Assembly: GCA_019449635.1 (NCBI GenBank) | Contig: JAGRPI010000012.1 | Span: forward strand, 78,802-142,801 | Direction of reading: 5' to 3' | Source: Candidatus Ferrigenium bremense | Lineage (GTDB): Bacteria > Pseudomonadota > Gammaproteobacteria > Burkholderiales > Gallionellaceae | DNA length: 64,000 nucleotides | Shown here: in pieces, positions 3,864 through 38,150 of the stretch | Layout: each line of letters begins with the position of its first letter | How positions within the stretch are numbered: position 1 is the first letter of the stretch | Position numbers and translations under genes: made by a program | The notes under the pieces: generated by a model | Databases searched by the model: none | Seen by the model: the letters and a program-made list of their open reading frames with translations, nothing else | What the model was told of the DNA's origin: nothing

Positions 3864-5072
3864 ATGAAGCTTCCGATTTACATGGATTACTCCGCGACCA
3901 CGCCGGTCGACCCGCGCGTGGCGGAGAAGATGATTCCCTATCTCACCGAGAAGTTCGGCAACCCGGCCAGCCGTTCCCACGCTTTCGGCTGGGAAGCCGA
4001 TGAGGCGGTGGAACTGGCGCGCGAGCAGGTCGCCGCGCTGGTGAACTGCGACCCCAAGGAGATCGTCTGGACCTCCGGTGCGACCGAGTCGAATAACCTT
4101 GCCATCAAGGGTGCGGCGCATTTCTACCAGGGCAAGGGCAAGCACATCATCACCATGCGCATCGAGCACAAGGCGGTGCTGGATACCGTGCGCGAACTGG
4201 AGCGCGAAGGCTTCAGCGCGACCTACCTCGATCCGGAGCCGAGCGGCTTGCTGGACCTGGGCAAGTTCAAGGCGGCCCTGCGTCCCGATACCGTGCTGGT
4301 GTCCATCATGCTGGTGAACAACGAGATCGGCGTGATCCAGGACATCGCAGCCATCGGCGAGATCTGCCGCGACAAGGGCATCCTGTTCCATGTGGATGCG
4401 GCCCAGGCGACCGGCAAGGTGGCCATCGATCTGCAGCAGCTGAAAGTCGACATGATGTCGTTCTCCGCGCACAAGACCTACGGTCCGAAAGGCATCGGTG
4501 CGCTGTACGTGCGGCGCAAGCCGCGCGTGCGCCTGGAAGCGCAGATGCACGGCGGCGGGCACGAACGCGGCATGCGCTCCGGTACGCTGCCGACGCACCA
4601 GATCGTCGGCATGGGCGAAGCGTTCCACATCGCCAAAGAGGAAATGGCACAGGAGAACGAGCGGGTGCGCCTGCTGCGCGACCGTCTGCTGAAAGGCCTG
4701 ATGGCCATGGAGGAAGTGCATATCAACGGCGACATGGAGCATCGTGTGCCGCATAATCTCAACCTCAGCTTCAGTTTCGTCGAAGGCGAATCGCTGATGA
4801 TGGCGGTCAAGGATGTCGCGGTGTCCAGCGGTTCGGCGTGTACTTCGGCGAGCCTGGAGCCATCCTACGTGCTGCGCGCGCTGGGGCGCAGCGACGAGCT
4901 GGCGCACAGCTCGATCCGCTTCAGCATCGGCCGTTTCACCACGGTCGAGGAAGTCGATTACGTCATCGAGCTGATGAAAGGCAGGATCGGCAAGCTGCGC
5001 GAGTTGTCGCCGCTGTGGGAAATGTATCAGGACGGCGTCGATCTGAATTCTGTGCAGTGGGCAGCACATTGA
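3864..5072 (+). CDS. iscS: Cysteine desulfurase IscS
   Basis: A 402-residue class V aminotransferase-fold, PLP-dependent cysteine desulfurase that provides persulfide sulfur for Fe-S clusters, thiolated tRNA and other cofactors. The PLP lysine lies in [17 protein letters not shown] (about residue 206) and the mobile-loop catalytic Cys in [17 protein letters not shown] (about residue 328). The N-terminus [19 protein letters not shown] and total length match the IscS (not SufS) class. A spacer of about 100 bp with a 13-bp inverted repeat separates it from iscU. Confidence 0.97.
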
Positions 5073-28944: not shown

Positions 28945-28952
28945 ATTGAAAA
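28945..28952. repeat. Target-site duplication, left copy
   Basis: ATTGAAAA directly abuts the left inverted repeat and is repeated exactly at 38112-38119, abutting the right one. Eight bp is the duplication size known for IS1595-family insertions. Confidence 0.9.
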
Positions 28953-28976
28953 CGCTATTATGCACCTGATGCACAA
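28953..28976 (+). repeat. Transposon left terminal inverted repeat
   Basis: CGCTATTATGCA followed by CCTGATGCACAA. The complement of the right end differs only by T for C at position 13. Confidence 0.9.
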
Positions 28977-29011
28977 ACAGCAATAAAACAATGAGTTGCA
29001 AATGAAGTAAC

Positions 29012-29045
29012 AAAAAGGCCAAGGAGTTATCCTTGGCCTTTTTCA
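29012..29045. terminator. Terminator just inside the transposon left end
   Basis: Perfect 13-bp arms AAAAAGGCCAAGG (29012-29024) and CCTTGGCCTTTTT (29031-29043) with a 6-nt loop, functional in both directions. It may insulate the cargo from dut transcription and end any outward transcription. Confidence 0.88.
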
Positions 29046-29211
29046 TTCCCCGCTTGCCTGCCGCAGCCGACCTTGCTACATTATTGGCAAGGCCGTCTGA
29101 GCCGAACCTGTCACCGGGTTAAAACGGACATCAAGCGCAACACTCTGCACGACCTTCGATCCGGTCGATGCGTAATCGGTGAACATCGACTTAACTTGAT
29201 TGGAGGCCATC

Positions 29212-29970
29212 ATGGCATCGATTCCATTATCCGAATCCGCACTTGTATCACTGAAGAAAACTCTTCGTACTGAATACCCAGATATCAAATCATCGCACCT
29301 GACTGAAGCTATTGCCGCTGCTTTGGGCCGCAAGTCGCATGCTGCTTTGCTTGCTGACCTATCCAAGCAACAAAACTCTCCTTGCTACGATTTATTGATT
29401 GATGAGGACTTTGATAGCCGTCTGCAAGAATTCGGTTATCCCGCCGATCCAGAATTTAGCTTTGAGTGGTTGGACAAGTCTGTATCAGAGATTATTTCCA
29501 CAGTGCCGCCATCTGCTTTAGATATCGAATACCGTACAGAGCGCGAGCGTGCGTGGCGTAACCTGATGGTGTGTGCGATCAACGAGGGGTTACGCCTAAA
29601 GCTGTTCACCCTGCACCCTGACAATTACAACTGGGCACCACAGGAAGACAATCATCACCAGCGAGATGGCCGAACATTTGATTTCGTTCTTCCTAACGGG
29701 CTGCCAGCTCGCGGCTATGTAGGCGATGCGGGATTTGGAGAGCTATCTATCCATGCGGCCGTTAATCCAAGCGGTGATTGGGTAAAGGCAGGGAATGCAG
29801 GTTTCTTAGCTGGCGACGCTTTTGCTGCTGGATGGCTAGAGCGCCAAGATGGAGCTTGGCTTCAGTCGGCCACGACTCAGTTCAATTGTCGGAAGCCGTT
29901 GCTGAATTCACTTGCCAACATTGAGGTTCGTCCGCGTGGGTTTGGGGATCGAGGGCGGGTGATTATGTAA
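29212..29970 (+). CDS. Hypothetical transposon passenger protein
   Basis: A 252-residue protein I do not recognise as a whole. The N-terminal stretch LKKTLRTEYPDIKSSHLTEAIAAALGRKSHAALLADL resembles the short helical domain found at the N-terminus of some glyoxalase-superfamily-related proteins; this is a weak resemblance. The remainder is mixed alpha/beta with a Gly-rich C-terminal half (GYVGDAGFGELSIHAAVNPSGDWVKAGNAGFLAGDAFAAGW) and no membrane segment. The ATG at 29212 has GGAGG 5 bp upstream. It is the only cargo gene on the plus strand and is convergent with the restriction genes. Confidence 0.7.
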   Translation: MASIPLSESALVSLKKTLRTEYPDIKSSHLTEAIAAALGRKSHAALLADLSKQQNSPCYDLLIDEDFDSRLQEFGYPADPEFSFEWLDKSVSEIISTVPPSALDIEYRTERERAWRNLMVCAINEGLRLKLFTLHPDNYNWAPQEDNHHQRDGRTFDFVLPNGLPARGYVGDAGFGELSIHAAVNPSGDWVKAGNAGFLAGDAFAAGWLERQDGAWLQSATTQFNCRKPLLNSLANIEVRPRGFGDRGRVIM

Positions 29971-29984
29971 CCAATGTACCTCCA

Positions 29985-30022
29985 ATAGAAAGGCCGTAGT
30001 TTTTCACTTTGGCCTTCGTTTT
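29985..30022 (+). terminator. Possible terminator between convergent cargo genes
   Basis: AAAGGCC and GGCCTT pair around a 16-nt T-rich loop and are followed by CGTTTTC. It lies 15 bp past the stop of the hypothetical gene. The stem is short, so this is tentative. Confidence 0.45.
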
Positions 30023-30145
30023 CTGCGAGCTAAATTGTTTTGAGCGCGTAGAAGTTGGCTCTATATCCTCGCGGTAATCCGATCTTCAGTTTCCAACGTT
30101 GGCGAAACGTGTGTAAAAGAATGAGGTTGCGTTGCAACCCTATTT

Positions 30146-30675
30146 TCATATCCGCTTAGTTACGGACGCTAATGCTCTGTGTGCTTCCTCGACAACCCCT
30201 GCAAACAATTCGGTTCCGAGATGTGTTAATCCCTCCCAGTCGACAATCTGCGAACCATCAGCGGCAGTAACCACGGGAATCATGATCATCTGGCGAGATA
30301 ATCTTCCAACATTTATTGCGTTTCCACGGTGGTACTTCGGAAAGCACTGATGGGTAATCGCAGATGCCAAACACACCAAAGCACTAGTAGATAAACCTTG
30401 CAGCTTGGGTTCTAGTCCTAAAACATGATTCGACGGCCAGAATGGCCTCGGCTGGTAGAAACATGTTCCTGCACCACCATCTCCGTCTTTAACCAGCGAC
30501 AGCCATCCACCTGGGCACTTTGCCTTATCGACGTACCCGACAATGCCGTTATTTTGGAAAGACGCTGCAACATACGGCACCGCACCGCTATCTTTCTTAG
30601 TGGCTCCCATACCATTGTGAACGAGGAACAAGTCAGTAATCAGAACTGGCCCGAACGTCAGCTTTTCGTACACAC

Positions 30676-30679
<4 letters not shown>
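30146..30679 (-). CDS. DNA-specificity subunit, single target-recognition domain
   Basis: A 177-residue protein resembling one target-recognition domain of BcgI-type and type I S subunits: KLTFGPVLITDLF at the start, VPYVAASFQNNGIVGYVDKAKCPGGWLSLVKDGDGGAGTCFYQPRPFWPSNHVLGLEPK in the middle, and the helical connector region at the end. Ordinary S subunits have two such domains and are about twice as long, so this one would specify a half-site and may act as a dimer. Its start overlaps the methyltransferase stop by 4 bp. Confidence 0.72.
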
Positions 30680-32826
<2,147 letters not shown>

Positions 32827-32842
32827 TCGTTCCTTTCATAAT

Positions 32843-34120
32843 TCAATCCTCAAAAAAGAATATCCCTCTCTGCCGGGGAGGCAGGATTTGGTCTTTAGCT
32901 TTCACTTGCAGGCCGGATCGACGATGCGCACCGTCATCGCCAATGACCTCAATGATTTTTTCATCGATAAGCTTCTCAATTGCTTCTCGGTAGATTGTTG
33001 CTGAGGCAGGGGAAGTGTTACATGTCTTGGCGAATAACTCGCCGAAGCTCACACCATCATCGTGCGAATAAATCAGTCTAGGGAGTTGCCGCATCAAGGC
33101 TGAAATACTGGCCTCTTTCGCAACATTGTCAAACTCAAATCCCAATCCGGACTGTCGCTTGAAATCGCTGTCATGATCAGGGTCATAACCAACCATCTGG
33201 AACATGTTGAGTCCGGCACCGCCATAATGAATGAAATAGTTATGGTTACTCCAGTGTACTTCGGTCATTACGTCGCGGGCGCGGTGATGTTGCGACATGT
33301 GAATCAGCCAATAATCGCCATGCCCCTTTTTGTTTCGAATAAAAAATGGGGTAAAGTATTCCGCACCGCACCGGCTTACCAACTCTTTATACAAGGCGCT
33401 CTGAATAAAGTAACGCCAATCCCGGTCAGAATTCTTAATCTCTTCAAGACTTTTCCCTTGCCACGGCTGAGGTATGCCGATCTCCACCAATAAGTCATTG
33501 GTGATTTTTTTATCGTTCGCAAAATTAAGTAATGAATCTACGCCAAAGGTCAGGATAACCTCTGCACTAGGCAAGTTCGAAAAAATCTTCTGGATGATCG
33601 GTGTGGGCACATCTTTGTACCCATACTGGTCAAGCACAAAGATGGAGCGCCCGTTACGTGGACTCTTGTGCTTGATAAAATCGATAATTTTATCGGCTTC
33701 GTCTTGGAATTTCGCATGCTTCAATTGGATCGTGTTACCCAATGCAGCGGCATAGCCATCCTCACGCAGCACCTTATCCAGATGAAGGTGGGCATTCCTG
33801 TCGGCTTCTACAAAGAAGTAACTCACGTCCAACTGAACCGGCTTGCGCCGATCCTTGTTAATCAGATATTCAGCTTCTTTCGTGGCTTCAAGAAAGATGA
33901 AAGGGGATCCCTTTACCAACTCCTGGGTGTCGCTGTGATAATACAGGCCGCCGCCAGCAAAACCGTCCACAAGGGTAAGGCGCAGCACGTCCTGATTAGG
34001 AGAACTCACCAGTGTCTGGAAATATGCCGCCAAGTAGCTTTGCAGAATGCGATGTTTCGCAATGCTATGCTGCTGAATAACGTCAGGCCCGGCACTCCAA
34101 TCGTAGTGTCTTATGGACAT
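32843..34120 (-). CDS. tcmP: Three-Cys-motif partner protein TcmP (second copy)
   Basis: A 425-residue member of the TcmP family, which occurs beside Gp37/Gp68 (three-Cys-motif) proteins and has no assigned function. LRLTLVDGFAGGGLYYH resembles a Rossmann/SAM-binding motif I, and SIFVLDQYGYKDVPTPIIQKIF sits where methyltransferases have a DPPY-type motif. The C-terminal part (about 330-425) contains a helical winged-helix-like segment (SFGELFAKTCNTSPASATIYREAIEKLIDEKIIEVIGDDG). It starts 9 bp after the Gp37/Gp68 gene and ends 16 bp before the restriction gene. Confidence 0.82.
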   Translation of the reverse strand: MSIRHYDWSAGPDVIQQHSIAKHRILQSYLAAYFQTLVSSPNQDVLRLTLVDGFAGGGLYYHSDTQELVKGSPFIFLEATKEAEYLINKDRRKPVQLDVSYFFVEADRNAHLHLDKVLREDGYAAALGNTIQLKHAKFQDEADKIIDFIKHKSPRNGRSIFVLDQYGYKDVPTPIIQKIFSNLPSAEVILTFGVDSLLNFANDKKITNDLLVEIGIPQPWQGKSLEEIKNSDRDWRYFIQSALYKELVSRCGAEYFTPFFIRNKKGHGDYWLIHMSQHHRARDVMTEVHWSNHNYFIHYGGAGLNMFQMVGYDPDHDSDFKRQSGLGFEFDNVAKEASISALMRQLPRLIYSHDDGVSFGELFAKTCNTSPASATIYREAIEKLIDEKIIEVIGDDGAHRRSGLQVKAKDQILPPRQRGIFFFED

Positions 34121-34129
34121 CCTGCGCCT

Positions 34130-34876
34130 TTAAAGAAGAGCTCCAAGTTCCGGCATCTGATCCCAAGTGCGACCACGAAATTTTCGGCCGTTCTCTCTTT
34201 TAGCCCTCTTTTTGCCATCAGCACCCCAGCCTCCCCATTGTTTGAAAAAGAAAGCTACATCCTGCTGTTCACACTGAAATTGTATCGACTCGACCCATTC
34301 CGGTTTCATTGGGCGGGCCTTGGGGCCGGACTCTCCGCCGACAATCACCCAATGAATATCCTTCAGATCGAAATCACCCAGATCTTCCAGAAGTGGCTCA
34401 ACCGATAGGAATCTTACCTGCGCATCCACGGAACGCAAATGTTCGATTCGCGGAAGACCATATTTCTGATCTTCTACGGATACACCAAGCCAAGCATTGG
34501 CTGGAACGGGCCTATTGGAAAAGTATTTCGCCATGCGCGCCGCACGCTTGGTCAATATCTGGTAGGTATGTTGCGGTGTCTGTCCGATGGTTTTGAATAT
34601 CCGGTCGATATACTCAAACGGCACCTTCTCATGAAACACGTCTGACATCGAGTTTACGAAATAAACCGTTGGTTTCTTCCTCTTCAATGGAGCATCAAGC
34701 CGATTAGGAAGAAGTGTCAGTTTGAAGCTATTGTCATATCCGGGAGCCTCCATGGCCTGCAGTCGCTTTGACATGGTCTCGGCATAGCAGTGTTTGCAGC
34801 CCGGTGAAACCTTAGTGCATCCTACAGTGGGATTCCATGTCTGCTCTGTCCATTCGATTTTGCTGTTGGTTGTCAT
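34130..34876 (-). CDS. Phage Gp37/Gp68 family (DUF5131) three-Cys protein
   Basis: A 248-residue protein with the family signature IEWTEQTWNPTVGCTKVSPGCKHCYAETMSKRLQAM. The Cys-x6-Cys-x2-Cys cluster is thought, by analogy with radical SAM enzymes and spore photoproduct lyase, to bind an iron-sulfur cluster. Further conserved segments are VYFVNSMSDVFHEKVPFEYIDRIF and WVIVGGESGPKARPMKPEWVESIQFQCEQQDVAFFFKQWGG. Substrate and function are unknown. It is flanked by two tcmP genes (4-bp overlap on one side, 9-bp gap on the other). Confidence 0.85.
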   Translation of the reverse strand: MTTNSKIEWTEQTWNPTVGCTKVSPGCKHCYAETMSKRLQAMEAPGYDNSFKLTLLPNRLDAPLKRKKPTVYFVNSMSDVFHEKVPFEYIDRIFKTIGQTPQHTYQILTKRAARMAKYFSNRPVPANAWLGVSVEDQKYGLPRIEHLRSVDAQVRFLSVEPLLEDLGDFDLKDIHWVIVGGESGPKARPMKPEWVESIQFQCEQQDVAFFFKQWGGWGADGKKRAKRENGRKFRGRTWDQMPELGALL

Positions 34877-35769
34877 GATCGTTGCCCCAATAAATAGTCT
34901 GCGATTCGAATTGCCGTGGATGCGCCTTTAGGATTGCCGGCTGCAAAACAGAGCAAATACATCGGGTTATTGCGCGAGTTGTATAACGCCTTTGTGGTAG
35001 GCGCTACACCGTGGAATATGGTCTTCAGTCGGTTAATAAGGAATTGTCCAATCCGATCAAAGGAAGCGTCCTTTACCAACTTCGGGTCTTCGCTGAACAG
35101 ATCGGATTGCTGTGACTTTGTATAAAACTCGGTCTTCCACGCATCCGTTCCGAAGATTTTTGTAAGTTTGTCAGCAAAAGCTTTGGGTGGGGTCGCCTCA
35201 CGCGTGAGCAATCTGTTTGCGCCGGTTCCTAACGGAAACAGAAACCATAGATCAACGGCTTTTGTGTCGGCAATTTGCTTAAGCAAATCCCACTCAATAT
35301 TCATTCCGTAGGGATCGAGAAAAATAACGGCCCGCTCTTTCATCCAGTCCCTGCGCTTGCACAACTCTCGGATTGCCTGCGGCCCATCTTCTTGGCGGAT
35401 ATGGCATCTAGACTCCAATTCAGGGAAGTCGCGTTTGATCATCGACTGGAGCTGCTCGACGTGATCCCGCTTTTTGTCGATAAAGACATACTCGTCGAAA
35501 GGCGAGGTAAGCTCCAGCGCAATCCGTGCACTACCTTTCAAATAGGCTTCGACCTCGGGAAGTTCGTCTGCCCCAAAAAGTTGCCGGTCTTCAAGATTAA
35601 CTTCCGGAGCTTTGCGTTCACCTGTTCCGGCGAATGCGTCGACGTAAATCGTCTTGAAGAATCTGGCTTTTTCATTTTGAGTGAATATAAGGCGATATTG
35701 GGTAAGGTAGTTCTTGAGCGCTTCAAGCTTTTGCTCAGTCCATTGCCCACCGAATTCGTGATCCACCAT
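34873..35769 (-). CDS. tcmP: Three-Cys-motif partner protein TcmP (first copy)
   Basis: A 298-residue TcmP protein. The N-terminal FGGQWTEQKLEALKNYLTQYRLIF and the Rossmann-like KTIYVDAFAGTGERKAP are family features, and RAVIFLDPYGMNIEWDLLKQIADTKAVDLWFLFPLGTGANRLL carries a DPYG motif. It is shorter than the second copy and lacks its C-terminal winged-helix-like part. It follows the LexA-like gene by 15 bp and overlaps the Gp37/Gp68 gene by 4 bp. Confidence 0.84.
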   Translation of the reverse strand: MVDHEFGGQWTEQKLEALKNYLTQYRLIFTQNEKARFFKTIYVDAFAGTGERKAPEVNLEDRQLFGADELPEVEAYLKGSARIALELTSPFDEYVFIDKKRDHVEQLQSMIKRDFPELESRCHIRQEDGPQAIRELCKRRDWMKERAVIFLDPYGMNIEWDLLKQIADTKAVDLWFLFPLGTGANRLLTREATPPKAFADKLTKIFGTDAWKTEFYTKSQQSDLFSEDPKLVKDASFDRIGQFLINRLKTIFHGVAPTTKALYNSRNNPMYLLCFAAGNPKGASTAIRIADYLLGQRS

Positions 35770-35784
35770 ATCGTCGCCCTCGGC

Positions 35785-36363
35785 CTATCCGTATTTGCGG
35801 TAACACCCGACCACACGCCCGTACAGCCTCCAATCCACTTTGGGACGAATGAGGGGGTAATCCTTATTGCCCGGCTTTAGATAGAACTCTTTTTTTTCAC
35901 GGGCCAGATACTTCACTGTGTATTCATTATCAACGATGGCGACCACGATGTCGCCGGGCATGGTTGGCGTATCTCGCTCCACGATTACTACATCCCCCGG
36001 CAGCAATCCCGCCTCAATCATCGAGTCGCCCTTGATCGTTAGCAGCTCGGTACGTGACGGACGTTGAATCAGAAAATCGTCGATAGACACAACATCATGT
36101 GGCACATCGTTCGCTGGCTGAGGCACGCCGGCGCGCACAGTATCAGCAATCTCACGTTCAAAGAATCGCTTTCCCGGCTGTAAACGCCGATCTGGTGTTT
36201 GATCCAGCACGCCAACCACCTTCATTCGATTGACCATCGCCGCGACTGCTGATGTGGATCTTAACCCGACGAGTTTGGCCACCGAAGTAAAGGATGGCAG
36301 CACCCTATGATGGGCGTAGTAGTCCTGAAGTTTGCCAAGGTATTCAGTGTCGCGGTTTTGCAT
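35785..36363 (-). CDS. LexA-like self-cleaving repressor
   Basis: A 192-residue LexA/S24-family protein. The N-terminal half has a LexA-type winged-helix region (LQDYYAHHRVLPSFTSVAKLVGLRSTSAVAAMVNRM). The cleavage site is Ala78-Gly79 (TVRAGVPQPA), the nucleophile Ser114 in TIKGDSMIEAGLLPGDVVIV, and the general base Lys151 in EYTVKYL. All parts needed for RecA-stimulated self-cleavage are therefore present. It is the first gene of the cargo operon and likely represses it; whether it is a second LexA or a dedicated regulator cannot be told here. Confidence 0.88.
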   Translation of the reverse strand: MQNRDTEYLGKLQDYYAHHRVLPSFTSVAKLVGLRSTSAVAAMVNRMKVVGVLDQTPDRRLQPGKRFFEREIADTVRAGVPQPANDVPHDVVSIDDFLIQRPSRTELLTIKGDSMIEAGLLPGDVVIVERDTPTMPGDIVVAIVDNEYTVKYLAREKKEFYLKPGNKDYPLIRPKVDWRLYGRVVGCYRKYG

Positions 36364-36378
36364 GGCGCGATTGTATAT

Positions 36379-36446
36379 GAATGTTCACTCGATTAAAACA
36401 CAATTTATCGAATGTTCTTTCGTATAGAACAATCATTCTATATAAT
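36379..36446. promoter_or_regulatory. Divergent promoters with palindromic operator
   Basis: GTTCT-N7-AGAAC (36414-36430) is a perfect inverted repeat, and GAATGTTC occurs twice in direct orientation (36379-36386, 36410-36417), with the related GAACAATCATTC at 36427-36438. A perfect TATAAT (36441-36446) faces the transposase. In the other direction TTGTTC, a 17-bp spacer and GATAAA could serve the repressor operon. The palindrome lies over both, so one repressor could control cargo and transposase. Inferred from sequence only. Confidence 0.6.
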
Positions 36447-36473
36447 CACTTCAAACAGGTTTTGTTCTCAATC

Positions 36474-37565
36474 ATGCCCGCCCATTTCTGGTTATCAAAA
36501 GAGGCTATACCGCTCACGCTTGATGAGTTATCTCTTCTGAGCGAGGATCAGGCTCGCCGATTTTTGGCTGAGATGCGTTGGGGCTGTGCAGATAAGCAGG
36601 TCTGCCCAGACTGTGGCGTGGTGGATTCTCATTACGACATTCGCACGCGCAAGCAATGGCGCTGCAAGCACTGTTCACACACTTTCTCGGTTACAACCAA
36701 CACACCGTTCGCTGACCACAAGATCAGTTACCGCAAACTGGCGATGGCGATCTTCGCGTTCGTCATCAATCAGAAGGGGTTGGCCGCGCTGACACTGCGC
36801 CGCATTATCGGCGGGCACTATCGAACCTCGTTTACGTTGCTGCACAAGATCCGCGAGGCGGTGATGTTGACGGTAAGCACAGAGAAAATGAATGGTGTGA
36901 TCGAGATCGACGGCGGCCACTTTTCCGGCAAGAAGCGCAAAGGTCGCAAGAAGAAGGAATCAACACCAGCGGACAAGAATCAAGTTCCAGCCAAATACAG
37001 CAACCAGCATCGCTCCAAGGTTGGCGCTTCAGCATTTCCGTTCCACCCGAACCGGCGCATCGTGATTGTGTTGCGCGAGATGTTTGGTGAGGCTGGCAAG
37101 GGCGCATCTCGCACTGTCGTAGCCGTGTGCAAATCAGAGAATGCAGCCGATGTTCAAGCACTGGTAAAGCAGTGGGTCAATGAACGCTCAACGATCCACT
37201 CAGACGAACTGCCTGCCTATGGGAATCTGAAGCTTATGGGCTTTGTCCATGAGGCAGTAAATCACTCGGAAGAGTTTTCAAGGGATGATGGCGTGAACGA
37301 GAACCAAGCGGAAAGCTTCTTCTCACGGATGAGACGCTCCTGTTTCGGCATTTACCACCGCATCACGCCGAAGTACATGTTGGACTATGCCTGCGAGATG
37401 GCGTGGCGCGAGGACATGCGACGGAAGAATACCAAGCATCAGATGCGGTCATTATTCCAACGAGTCTGTAGTGCTGGTGTTTCGTCGGATTGGTTCAACT
37501 ACTCTCATGGACACAGGCGTATGGCAGAGATCATGTTTCAAGCGCCGCTGTCATCGGCTACATAG
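36474..37565 (+). CDS. IS1595-family transposase
   Basis: A 363-residue DDE-type transposase. An N-terminal zinc ribbon (CPDCGVVDSHYDIRTRKQWRCKHC) precedes the catalytic domain, with first Asp in IEIDGGHFSGKKRKGRKK, second in STIHSDELPAYGNL and the Glu/Asn region NQAESFFSRMRRSCFGIYH. These are ISXO2/IS1595 features. The start MPAHFWLSKEAIPLTLDEL at 36474 is preferred; an upstream frame overlaps the regulatory region. Its 3' end overlaps the convergent gene by 28 bp. It is apparently intact. Confidence 0.93.
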   Translation: MPAHFWLSKEAIPLTLDELSLLSEDQARRFLAEMRWGCADKQVCPDCGVVDSHYDIRTRKQWRCKHCSHTFSVTTNTPFADHKISYRKLAMAIFAFVINQKGLAALTLRRIIGGHYRTSFTLLHKIREAVMLTVSTEKMNGVIEIDGGHFSGKKRKGRKKKESTPADKNQVPAKYSNQHRSKVGASAFPFHPNRRIVIVLREMFGEAGKGASRTVVAVCKSENAADVQALVKQWVNERSTIHSDELPAYGNLKLMGFVHEAVNHSEEFSRDDGVNENQAESFFSRMRRSCFGIYHRITPKYMLDYACEMAWREDMRRKNTKHQMRSLFQRVCSAGVSSDWFNYSHGHRRMAEIMFQAPLSSAT

Positions 37566-38053
37566 TTATCAGTCCAACACCAAATGCCCTCAAGCGTGTC
37601 GGGCGTGGAGGGTAATCGGACAACCGCACCTTTTGCCTTGAAAACATTGAGTGGTCGCCGTACCAGTTCCCGAGAGCGGTTGCGTTCCTTTGTAGTGGAC
37701 ATAGGCAAGTTAAATACGGCTACCATGTGCTGAAGTAAAGCACCGCTCGACACCGGGCCGCCAGCTTCCTTGAGTATTCTCACCAGTTCACGCCTGAATG
37801 CGCCATGCCGGGCTTCTTGACGCCGAGGGGTTGAACGAATCGGCTTGATATGTGAGGTATCAATGGCAGAGGCGGCAGTGATTTTGCCATCCAACTCAAC
37901 AATCCTCGTTTCAACTTGCAGAAGCTCTTGATCGAGGCGGGATAATTCTTCCTGCAATCTGACCCGGCGAGAGCGCAGCAGGGCGCAATGCCCTGCGGTG
38001 TACGCGCGCTCCTTAATCAATCGACTTACCTTTGGGCCGACATGGTTTGCCAT
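37538..38053 (-). CDS. Hypothetical protein at the transposon right end
   Basis: A 171-residue protein I cannot assign. The N-terminal 70 residues form a predicted coiled coil (CALLRSRRVRLQEELSRLDQELLQVETRIVELDGKI). The C-terminal half resembles a winged helix (AFRRELVRILKEAGGPVSSGALLQHMVAVFNLPMSTTKERNRSRELVRRPLNVFKAKGAVVRL), suggesting DNA binding. Lying between transposase and end repeat, it may be a transposition accessory or regulatory protein. Confidence 0.72.
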   Translation of the reverse strand: MANHVGPKVSRLIKERAYTAGHCALLRSRRVRLQEELSRLDQELLQVETRIVELDGKITAASAIDTSHIKPIRSTPRRQEARHGAFRRELVRILKEAGGPVSSGALLQHMVAVFNLPMSTTKERNRSRELVRRPLNVFKAKGAVVRLPSTPDTLEGIWCWTDNYVADDSGA

Positions 38054-38087
38054 GCTGGCGATGAGAGCACATCAAAGGCGTGATGTC

Positions 38088-38111
38088 TTGTGCATCAGAT
38101 GCATAATAGCG
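38088..38111 (-). repeat. Transposon right terminal inverted repeat
   Basis: TTGTGCATCAGA followed by TGCATAATAGCG, complementary to the left end at 23 of 24 positions; the ATTGAAAA duplication follows at 38112-38119. Confidence 0.9.
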
Positions 38112-38114
38112 ATT

Positions 38115-38150
38115 GAAAAACAAAAGCCCGCCGAAGCGGGCTTTTGTTTT
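38115..38150. terminator. Bidirectional terminator (PEGA lipoprotein gene; formerly dut)
   Basis: AAAACAAAAGCCCGC and GCGGGCTTTTGTTTT pair around CGAA, with A/T tracts on both sides. It ends the PEGA lipoprotein gene and, before the transposon inserted, would have stood about 25-30 bp after dut. Confidence 0.9.

What the first reader, a model, noticed from the sequence alone, without database searches (positions are those of the whole stretch)
28945..38119. Complete 9.2-kb IS1595-type transposon carrying a regulated restriction/TcmP cargo
Seen: 24-bp inverted repeats (28953-28976, 38088-38111; one mismatch), each directly abutted by the same 8-bp sequence ATTGAAAA; a single intact IS1595-family transposase inside; all cargo frames open; interior more AT-rich. 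Known: IS1595-family insertions make 8-bp duplications, and some members carry passenger genes. Inferred: this is one mobile unit, larger than a simple insertion sequence, spreading a restriction system, two TcmP proteins, a Gp37/Gp68 protein and a LexA-like repressor. The exact end structure makes the boundary unusually certain.
Basis: partly seen in the sequence, partly recalled or inferred. Interest (0 to 1): 0.93.

Follow-up and report, generated by a model that had tools for sequence, protein, structure and literature searches.

The report
Switchable phage-defence cargo on jumping DNA
This 9.2-kb stretch is a complete jumping element of the IS1595 type that carries restriction genes and candidate anti-phage genes; it has at least eleven complete relatives with other cargo, its own LexA-like repressor likely keeps it quiet until DNA is damaged, and a four-letter repeat in its restriction gene is predicted to flip that gene on and off.

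Summary
A relative 93% identical in the left flank lacks the element. I found 11 further complete elements (3.7-15.4 kb), each with its own 8-bp duplication (exact in 11 of 12, 7/8 in one), related ends and transposase, and a small coiled-coil/winged-helix gene between transposase and near end. In 10 of 12 the cargo matches anti-phage models (type II, IIG and III restriction, JetD, MkoC). Two features stand out. (1) A LexA-type repressor, in a clade apart from the chromosomal LexA examined, sits head-to-head with the transposase over an invariant 20-bp near-palindrome in 4 of 12 elements; the repressor-TcmP-DUF5131-TcmP block also sits beside a Tn3 transposase. (2) The restriction gene starts with non-triplet tandem repeats in 5 of 12 complete elements and one partial one: in frame in 2 of 6, out of frame in 4 of 6. 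AGCC runs occur in 4 of 158 family genomes, all at such genes. DNA-damage control and phase switching are predicted, not shown.

The parts
28945..28952 (.). target-site duplication ATTGAAAA, left copy
28953..28976 (+). left terminal inverted repeat (24 bp)
29212..29970 (+). 252-aa protein without a known family; 387 hits at E<=1e-5 (itself included), best other 88% identical; none of the 120 listed has an informative name
30146..30679 (-). 177-aa specificity domain (Methylase_S)
   Evidence: PF01420 E=1.3e-14; Specificity_II E=4.7e-6
30676..32826 (-). type IIG restriction-methylation enzyme, 716 aa, frame open through the repeat
   Evidence: PDLC03602 E=2.7e-183; PF02384
32759..32812 (-). GCTT tandem repeat, 13.5 copies, codes ASKQ repeats a few codons after the start; predicted slippage switch; the only run of GCTT x4.5 or more in the own genome
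32843..34120 (-). TcmP with GMT-like wHTH domain, 425 aa
   Evidence: TIGR04474 E=2.6e-72; PF22560; PDC-M30A 2.6e-25
34130..34876 (-). DUF5131 (Gp37/Gp68) protein, 248 aa
   Evidence: PF07505 E=5.1e-111; PDC-M30B/M41B
34873..35769 (-). TcmP, 298 aa
   Evidence: TIGR04474 E=1.6e-54; PDC-M41A 1e-125
35785..36363 (-). LexA-type repressor with S24 peptidase domain; GDSM, TVK and RAG motifs kept in all six mobile copies
   Evidence: PF00717 E=3.2e-23; TIGR00498 91 bits, under the 110.95 cut-off
36424..36443 (.). predicted operator ATAGAACAATCATTCTATAT, identical in window, L022, L023 and L028, core of an imperfect palindrome; overlaps a TATAAT at 36441-36446
36474..37565 (+). IS1595-family transposase, 363 aa
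   Evidence: PF12762, PF12760; NF033547 120.8 bits, cut-off 75
37538..38053 (-). accessory protein, 171 aa: long helix (5-62) then a winged-helix-like part; gene tail-to-tail with the transposase
38088..38111 (-). right terminal inverted repeat (24 bp)
38112..38119 (.). target-site duplication ATTGAAAA, right copy, touching a terminator-like hairpin at 38117-38150

Best explanation
Window 28953-38111 is a complete IS1595-family transposon, one of at least twelve complete elements with related ends, that carries a block of restriction and candidate anti-phage genes; its LexA-like repressor likely holds the transposase and the cargo operon off until DNA damage, and a GCTT repeat in its restriction gene is predicted to switch that gene on and off by slippage. 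Shown: ends, 8-bp duplication, empty site in a relative, the related elements, the shared control sequence, the repeats and their reading frames. Inferred: the repressor binds the 20-bp near-palindrome at 36424-36443 and lowers transcription both towards the transposase and towards its own operon (repressor, TcmP, DUF5131, TcmP, type IIG, specificity domain); RecA-stimulated self-cleavage, as in LexA, lifts this, so that damage, for instance from phage attack, raises defence and mobility together. Inferred: slippage of the repeat moves the restriction gene in or out of frame, so that many copies arrive silent in a new, unmethylated host and a minority of cells turn them on later. Inferred: the winged-helix accessory protein helps or limits transposition.
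For: Ends and duplications in 12 complete elements: 8/8 in 11, 7/8 in one. Empty site in L053; 6 of 29 fetched dut loci of relatives run straight from dut into the PEGA lipoprotein gene. Cargo matches anti-phage models in 10 of 12. Operator: 20 of 20 bases identical in window, L022, L023 and L028, 30-41 bp before the transposase start, although those transposases are 36-40% identical to the window's; L039 has two exact GAAC-N4-GTTC boxes before its repressor gene. 19 of 19 non-element LexA loci examined carry an exact GAAC-N4-GTTC box 23-29 bases before the inferred start (the more distant 41-46% LexA group was not examined). The six mobile copies form one group, 96/93 support. The own-genome paralogue is followed by a DNA polymerase IV-like frame (below the curated cut-offs; the frame runs off the stretch). 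Repeats: GCTT x13.5 (window), AGCC x7.2 (L022), CAGC x7.5 (L023), TGGC x14.8 (L028), CCAGCAG x47.4 (G335), TGGC x28 (L162), each at the start of a restriction or methylase gene. Runs of AGCC x5 in 4 of 158 family genomes, all four at such genes; the GCTT run once in the own genome.
Against: No expression, binding, cleavage or transposition data. The consensus promoter scan found no promoter reading towards the transposase; its two hits read the other way. The repressor scores below the curated LexA cut-off (91 of 110.95 bits) and below that of PF01726 (17.7 of 23.7). Only 4 of 12 complete elements have the LexA-like gene; others have a DUF6471 or WYL gene, or no regulator that I recognised. 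7 of 12 complete elements have no such repeat, nor has L039, which does have the repressor but is cut by its contig end. Next to Tn3 (L116) the repressor gene lies downstream of and in line with the transposase gene, so there it cannot act on that promoter in the same way. No second isolate with the same element was available to see repeat numbers change. L018 and L019 gave no anti-phage match. The empty site in L053 differs by 3 bases in length from the joined window flanks.
Confidence: 0.7

Rival explanations
1. An ordinary passenger-carrying IS1595 element: cargo was caught by chance, and the LexA-like gene serves only the TcmP/DUF5131 genes, not the transposase.
For: Passenger genes in IS copies are known ('transporter ISs', passage in PMC3129680). 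The repressor-TcmP-DUF5131-TcmP block sits beside Tn3, and the repressor gene is lacking in 8 of 12 complete elements.
Against: 10 of 12 cargoes match anti-phage models; the operator-like sequence lies 30-41 bp before the transposase start in four elements, and the DNA shared with L022 runs up to 36449, past it.
Confidence: 0.25
2. The LexA-like gene is the switch of an autonomous defence block (like the damage-responsive regulators known for some defence systems, recalled); the transposon is just one of several vehicles.
For: The block is found with two IS1595 lineages and beside a Tn3 transposase; its DNA homology to L116 covers 32842-36382, the four genes.
Against: The same repressor also heads a type III restriction operon without TcmP or DUF5131 (L028) and a methylase gene in L039, in both cases next to an IS1595 transposase.
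Confidence: 0.35
3. The tandem repeats are neutral tracts that happen to lie at coding starts; the out-of-frame genes are simply dead.
For: 4 of 6 are out of frame; no length variants of one and the same element were seen.
Against: Repeats of different units (GCTT, AGCC/CAGC/TGGC, CCAGCAG) lie at the start of enzymes of different types; the bodies stay open over hundreds of codons; runs of AGCC x5 are found in only 4 of 158 genomes, at these genes.
Confidence: 0.12
4. The boundary is a chance match and the region is a decayed island.
For: G+C is also lower in the 2 kb right of the element.
Against: Exact duplications, empty site, 11 sister elements.
Confidence: 0.01

Closest known systems
IS1595-family elements with passenger genes ('transporter IS'; Siguier, Gagnevin, Chandler 2009, seen only as a reference in PMC3129680 and PMC12561309)
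   Same: Transposase family, terminal inverted repeats, 8-bp duplications (8 bp in ISApl4, 7-9 bp for IS1016 elements: passages of PMC12561309), extra genes
   Different: Up to 15.4 kb; cargo mostly anti-phage; LexA-type repressor in some; accessory winged-helix gene; repeats in restriction genes. Whether the 2009 paper describes any of these I could not see
Tn7-like transposons with defence cargo (Benler 2021, title seen in the reference list of PMC10121019)
   Same: One transposon chassis with many different defence systems
   Different: Single IS1595-type transposase, regulator beside the transposase; smaller size (recalled)
Phase-variable type IIG and type III restriction systems (phasevarions; PMC4889913 passages)
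   Same: Simple repeats in the reading frame of a methylase gene
   Different: Here inside transposons, also in a type II methylase-endonuclease pair, with tetra- and heptanucleotide units
PADLOC phage-defence candidates PDC-M30 and PDC-M41
   Same: TcmP plus DUF5131
   Different: Two TcmP genes and one DUF5131 behind a LexA-type repressor; function untested
Tn3-type neighbourhood in L116
   Same: Repressor-TcmP-DUF5131-TcmP block, 78/94/95/88% protein identity
   Different: Tn3 transposase and a tyrosine recombinase gene; no restriction gene between them

Membership tests
IS1595-family transposon | Transposase with IS1595 DDE domain and zinc ribbon | tested here: met
   PF12762 126.2 bits (cut-off 27), PF12760 55.5 (25.4), NF033547 120.8 (75):
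IS1595-family transposon | 8-bp target duplication | tested here: met
   family value from PMC12561309 passages
IS1595-family transposon | Terminal inverted repeats | tested here: met
   24 bp, one mismatch
IS1595-family transposon | Catalytic residues of the transposase and its ISfinder subgroup | not tested
   ISfinder not at hand; residues not checked one by one
IS1595-family transposon | Actual movement | not testable with these tools
   Only an empty site in a relative
LexA | S24 peptidase domain with Ser/Lys and cleavage site | tested here: met
   PF00717; GDSM, TVK and RAG in six of six mobile copies; roles of the residues recalled
LexA | Score above the curated LexA equivalog cut-off | tested here: not met
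   91.0 of 110.95 bits; the chromosomal paralogue also falls short, 103.6
LexA | GAAC-N4-GTTC type operator upstream | tested here: inconclusive
   Exact in L039; one-base variant (GAAC-N4-ATTC) in window, L022, L023, L028; weaker in L116
Phase-variable restriction system | Non-triplet tandem repeat in the reading frame near the start | tested here: met
Phase-variable restriction system | Repeat number and expression vary within a population | not testable with these tools
   Needs reads or cultures
Type IIG restriction enzyme | Fused endonuclease-methylase | tested here: met
   PDLC03602 matches residues 52-695; activity untested
PDC-M30 / PDC-M41 defence candidates | TcmP beside DUF5131 | tested here: met

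The most novel reading that the evidence does not exclude
A dedicated class of DNA-damage-wired, phase-variable defence transposons: one LexA-type switch, borrowed from the SOS system and portable between transposon families, raises jumping and anti-phage genes together when DNA is broken, while a slippage repeat lets the restriction enzyme travel silent and awaken after settling, which solves the problem of bringing a restriction enzyme into an unmethylated cell.
Probability: 0.35. Interest if true: 0.88.

Novelty: new variant of a known kind. Interest (0 to 1): 0.75.

Why it matters
It gives restriction and candidate defence genes a concrete, countable vehicle in relatives of the window's genome; makes testable how a restriction enzyme enters a naive cell (silent by repeat, held by a repressor); and offers the two TcmP plus DUF5131 genes, for which I found no tested function, in a mobile, regulated block with defined boundaries.

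Tried and rejected
Rejected: chance boundary. Rejected: 'all cargo is defence': L018 and L019 gave no match at E<=0.001 (5 frames scanned). Unguided end search around ten further transposase loci (L020, L021, L040, L041, L042, L016, L024, L017, L045, L030; L042 and L016 are the same contig) and truncated L039 gave no pair; several lie at contig ends. The own-genome search for GAACGNNCGTTC found two places, the lexA-like gene itself and a region that looks by eye like a sugar-epimerase gene, fewer than the 4 of the reversed control pattern, so I do not claim a wide regulon for that paralogue. The promoter scan did not support a transposase promoter. Fold search of the accessory protein listed mostly generic winged-helix matches, none at E<=0.001; pTM 0.45. 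Plasmid searches: transposase relatives all under 60% identity (217 records); S24 relatives all under 60% (capped at 5000 records); for the L023 transposase 1 of 330 records at 60-80%. Paper searches; no title or abstract start listed there tells of IS1595 elements as defence carriers with a LexA-type repressor or repeat-switched restriction genes; several listings were cut (20 of 396, 20 of 38, 10 of 21, 12 of 47), and most subscription papers are missing from that library. I read passages only, no whole paper.
Full report
What is there. The element spans 28953-38111 (9,159 bp) with ATTGAAAA on both sides. Its gene order from left to right is: a 252-aa protein without a known family (+), then on the minus strand a specificity domain, a type IIG restriction enzyme, TcmP with a wHTH domain, DUF5131, a second TcmP and a LexA-like repressor, then the transposase (+) and a 171-aa gene (-) that meets it tail to tail. 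The six minus-strand genes from the repressor to the specificity domain overlap or lie within 16 bases of each other, so they read like one operon led by the repressor.

Empty site. 143 of 158 family genomes matched the dut end; loci of the 29 best others were compared. 6 align in one piece from dut into the PEGA lipoprotein gene with no element (L053, L055, L071, L072, L077, L079), 2 have both flanks with other sequence between them (L054, L068), and in 21 only the dut side aligns as a long piece. The nearest, L053 (93% identical at dut), reads GACTTGAAAAAACAAAAGCCC where the joined window flanks read GACTTGATTGAAAAACAAAAGCCC: one target, no insert, three bases shorter.

A family of elements. 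Transposase searches covered 158 family genomes (11 with a match at 1e-20, own included) and 399 order genomes (11 at 1e-40; 7 at 1e-60 with the L023 transposase as query); one scan of genome contigs gave 5 loci. Around these I found twelve complete elements including the window: window 9,159 bp; G072 (L022) 9,057; G061 (L023) 6,660; G089 (L028) 6,974; G256 (L046) 6,976; L018 3,948; L019 3,742; G078 contig 13 13,871; G070 12,666; G078 contig 20 11,609; G335 15,396; G299 12,048. Flanking 8-mers are identical in 11 and 7/8 in G256. In G256 the transposase frame is broken in two. Ends follow CGGNATTATGTAGCA..GCACAA in most; the window, L039 and L015 share the variant CGCTATTATG.

Cargo. PADLOC models hit: window type IIG, specificity, PDC-M30/M41; L022 a methylase of type II/IIG kind, L023 a type II methylase and endonuclease, L028 a type III pair, L039 (truncated) a methylase, G078 contig 13 MkoC E=4.9e-161, G299 type IIG E=0; G070 JetD E=1.4e-15 only, the other three proteins of that gene group matched nothing at 1e-6; G078 contig 20 type II methylase E=2.7e-244; G335 type III methylase E=6e-142 and a weak type III endonuclease (ResIII); L046 type IIG and specificity; L018, L019 nothing. 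So 10 of 12. I scanned the larger frames of each element, not every frame.

Accessory gene. A gene of 141-175 aa between the transposase and the near end is present in all 12, in four of them as two copies side by side. It falls into two distant groups (17-23% identity between the window copy and those of L022, L023, L028, L046, L018, L019); the L015 copy of the window's group still matches that of L028 (E=1.9e-7). A search found 18 proteins including itself, without a family. The model shows one long helix and a winged-helix-like part (mean pLDDT 83.6, pTM 0.45).

Regulator. The LexA-like gene occurs in four complete elements (window, L022, L023, L028), in truncated L039 and beside Tn3 in L116. 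DNA shared with L022 (80.5% over 2,311 bp) runs from 34152 to 36449, from DUF5131 through TcmP, the repressor and the control region to just before the transposase gene, whose protein is only 40% identical. DNA shared with L116 (82.3% over 3,543 bp) runs from 32842 to 36382: TcmP, DUF5131, TcmP, repressor. ATAGAACAATCATTCTATAT (36424-36443) is the longest invariant piece of the control region in four elements and lies 30-41 bp before the transposase start. In a tree of the window and 24 other loci (the window's own locus L090 left out) the six mobile copies are one group (96/93; 97% of bootstrap trees). 19 of 19 non-element loci examined have an exact GAAC-N4-GTTC box at -23 to -29; these were the loci given for the best hits, not all hits, and the 41-46% group was not examined. 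The own-genome copy is followed by a DNA polymerase IV-like frame. GDSM, TVK and RAG motifs are in six of six mobile copies; that such Ser, Lys and Ala-Gly drive self-cleavage is recalled from E. coli LexA.

Repeats. Window GCTT x13.5, in frame. L022 AGCC x7.2, L023 CAGC x7.5, L028 TGGC x14.8 and G335 CCAGCAG x47.4: the start codon before the repeat and the enzyme body after it are in different frames. L162 TGGC x28: one open frame of 1,113 aa, type IIG, next to DUF5131 and TcmP and with one IS1595-type end. Thus 2 of 6 in frame, 4 of 6 out of frame, near the one third that random phase would give. The other 7 complete elements have no such repeat. Runs of AGCC x5 occur in 4 of 158 family genomes (G061, G063, G072, G089), all at these genes. 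The GCTT run occurs once in the own genome; other genomes were not searched for GCTT.

Targets. Empty sites of G072 and both G078 elements are centred on the loop of a 15-16-bp hairpin; those of G070, G299 and G335 lie on a hairpin arm, the window's beside a terminator-like hairpin; the other five show no such strong hairpin at the site (RNA parameters). The two G078 targets are near copies of each other. L018 and L019 lie at the same place in a Mg-chelatase/ComM-like gene (PF01078; the name ComM is recalled).

Reading. Shown: mobile unit, family, cargo theme, shared control sequence, repeats. Predicted: damage-induced release, phase switching, role of the accessory gene, anti-phage action of TcmP/DUF5131. 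The promoter scan and the LexA cut-offs speak against an easy assignment.

Noticed in passing
L116:6632-14804: The repressor-TcmP-DUF5131-TcmP block lies between a Tn3-family transposase gene (980 aa) and a tyrosine recombinase gene, without a restriction gene.
   Followed up: partly
L162:6101-12093: TGGC x28 in a 1,113-aa type IIG gene beside TcmP and DUF5131, one IS1595-type end, on a contig with a TrbL/VirB6-like gene; the other end was not found.
   Followed up: partly
L119:6443-6774: CCAGCAG repeated 47 times at the start of a type III methylase gene (G335), out of frame.
   Followed up: partly
L018:8785-12732 and L019:8617-12358: Two small elements (Tropicimonas and Maritimibacter records) sit at the same place of a Mg-chelatase/ComM-like gene, in the same orientation.
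   Followed up: partly
L022, L120 and L027/L049 element junctions: Insertion centred on the loop of long palindromes; the two in G078 are near copies of each other.
   Followed up: partly
L114:3-1511: A chromosomal LexA-like gene with its own GAACGTTCGTTC box leads a DNA polymerase IV-like frame; many other genomes of this genus have a 41-46% identical LexA instead.
   Followed up: partly
window:29212-29970: 252-aa protein with many relatives and no named family; no match among the frames of 80 aa or more of the other eleven elements.
   Followed up: partly
G070, G078 contig 20, G335 and G299 elements (L026, L027, L044, L043): Accessory gene in two copies side by side.
   Followed up: no
L017:1140-6555: Two IS1595-type transposase genes within 5.5 kb in a Pasteurellaceae MAG contig.
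   Followed up: no
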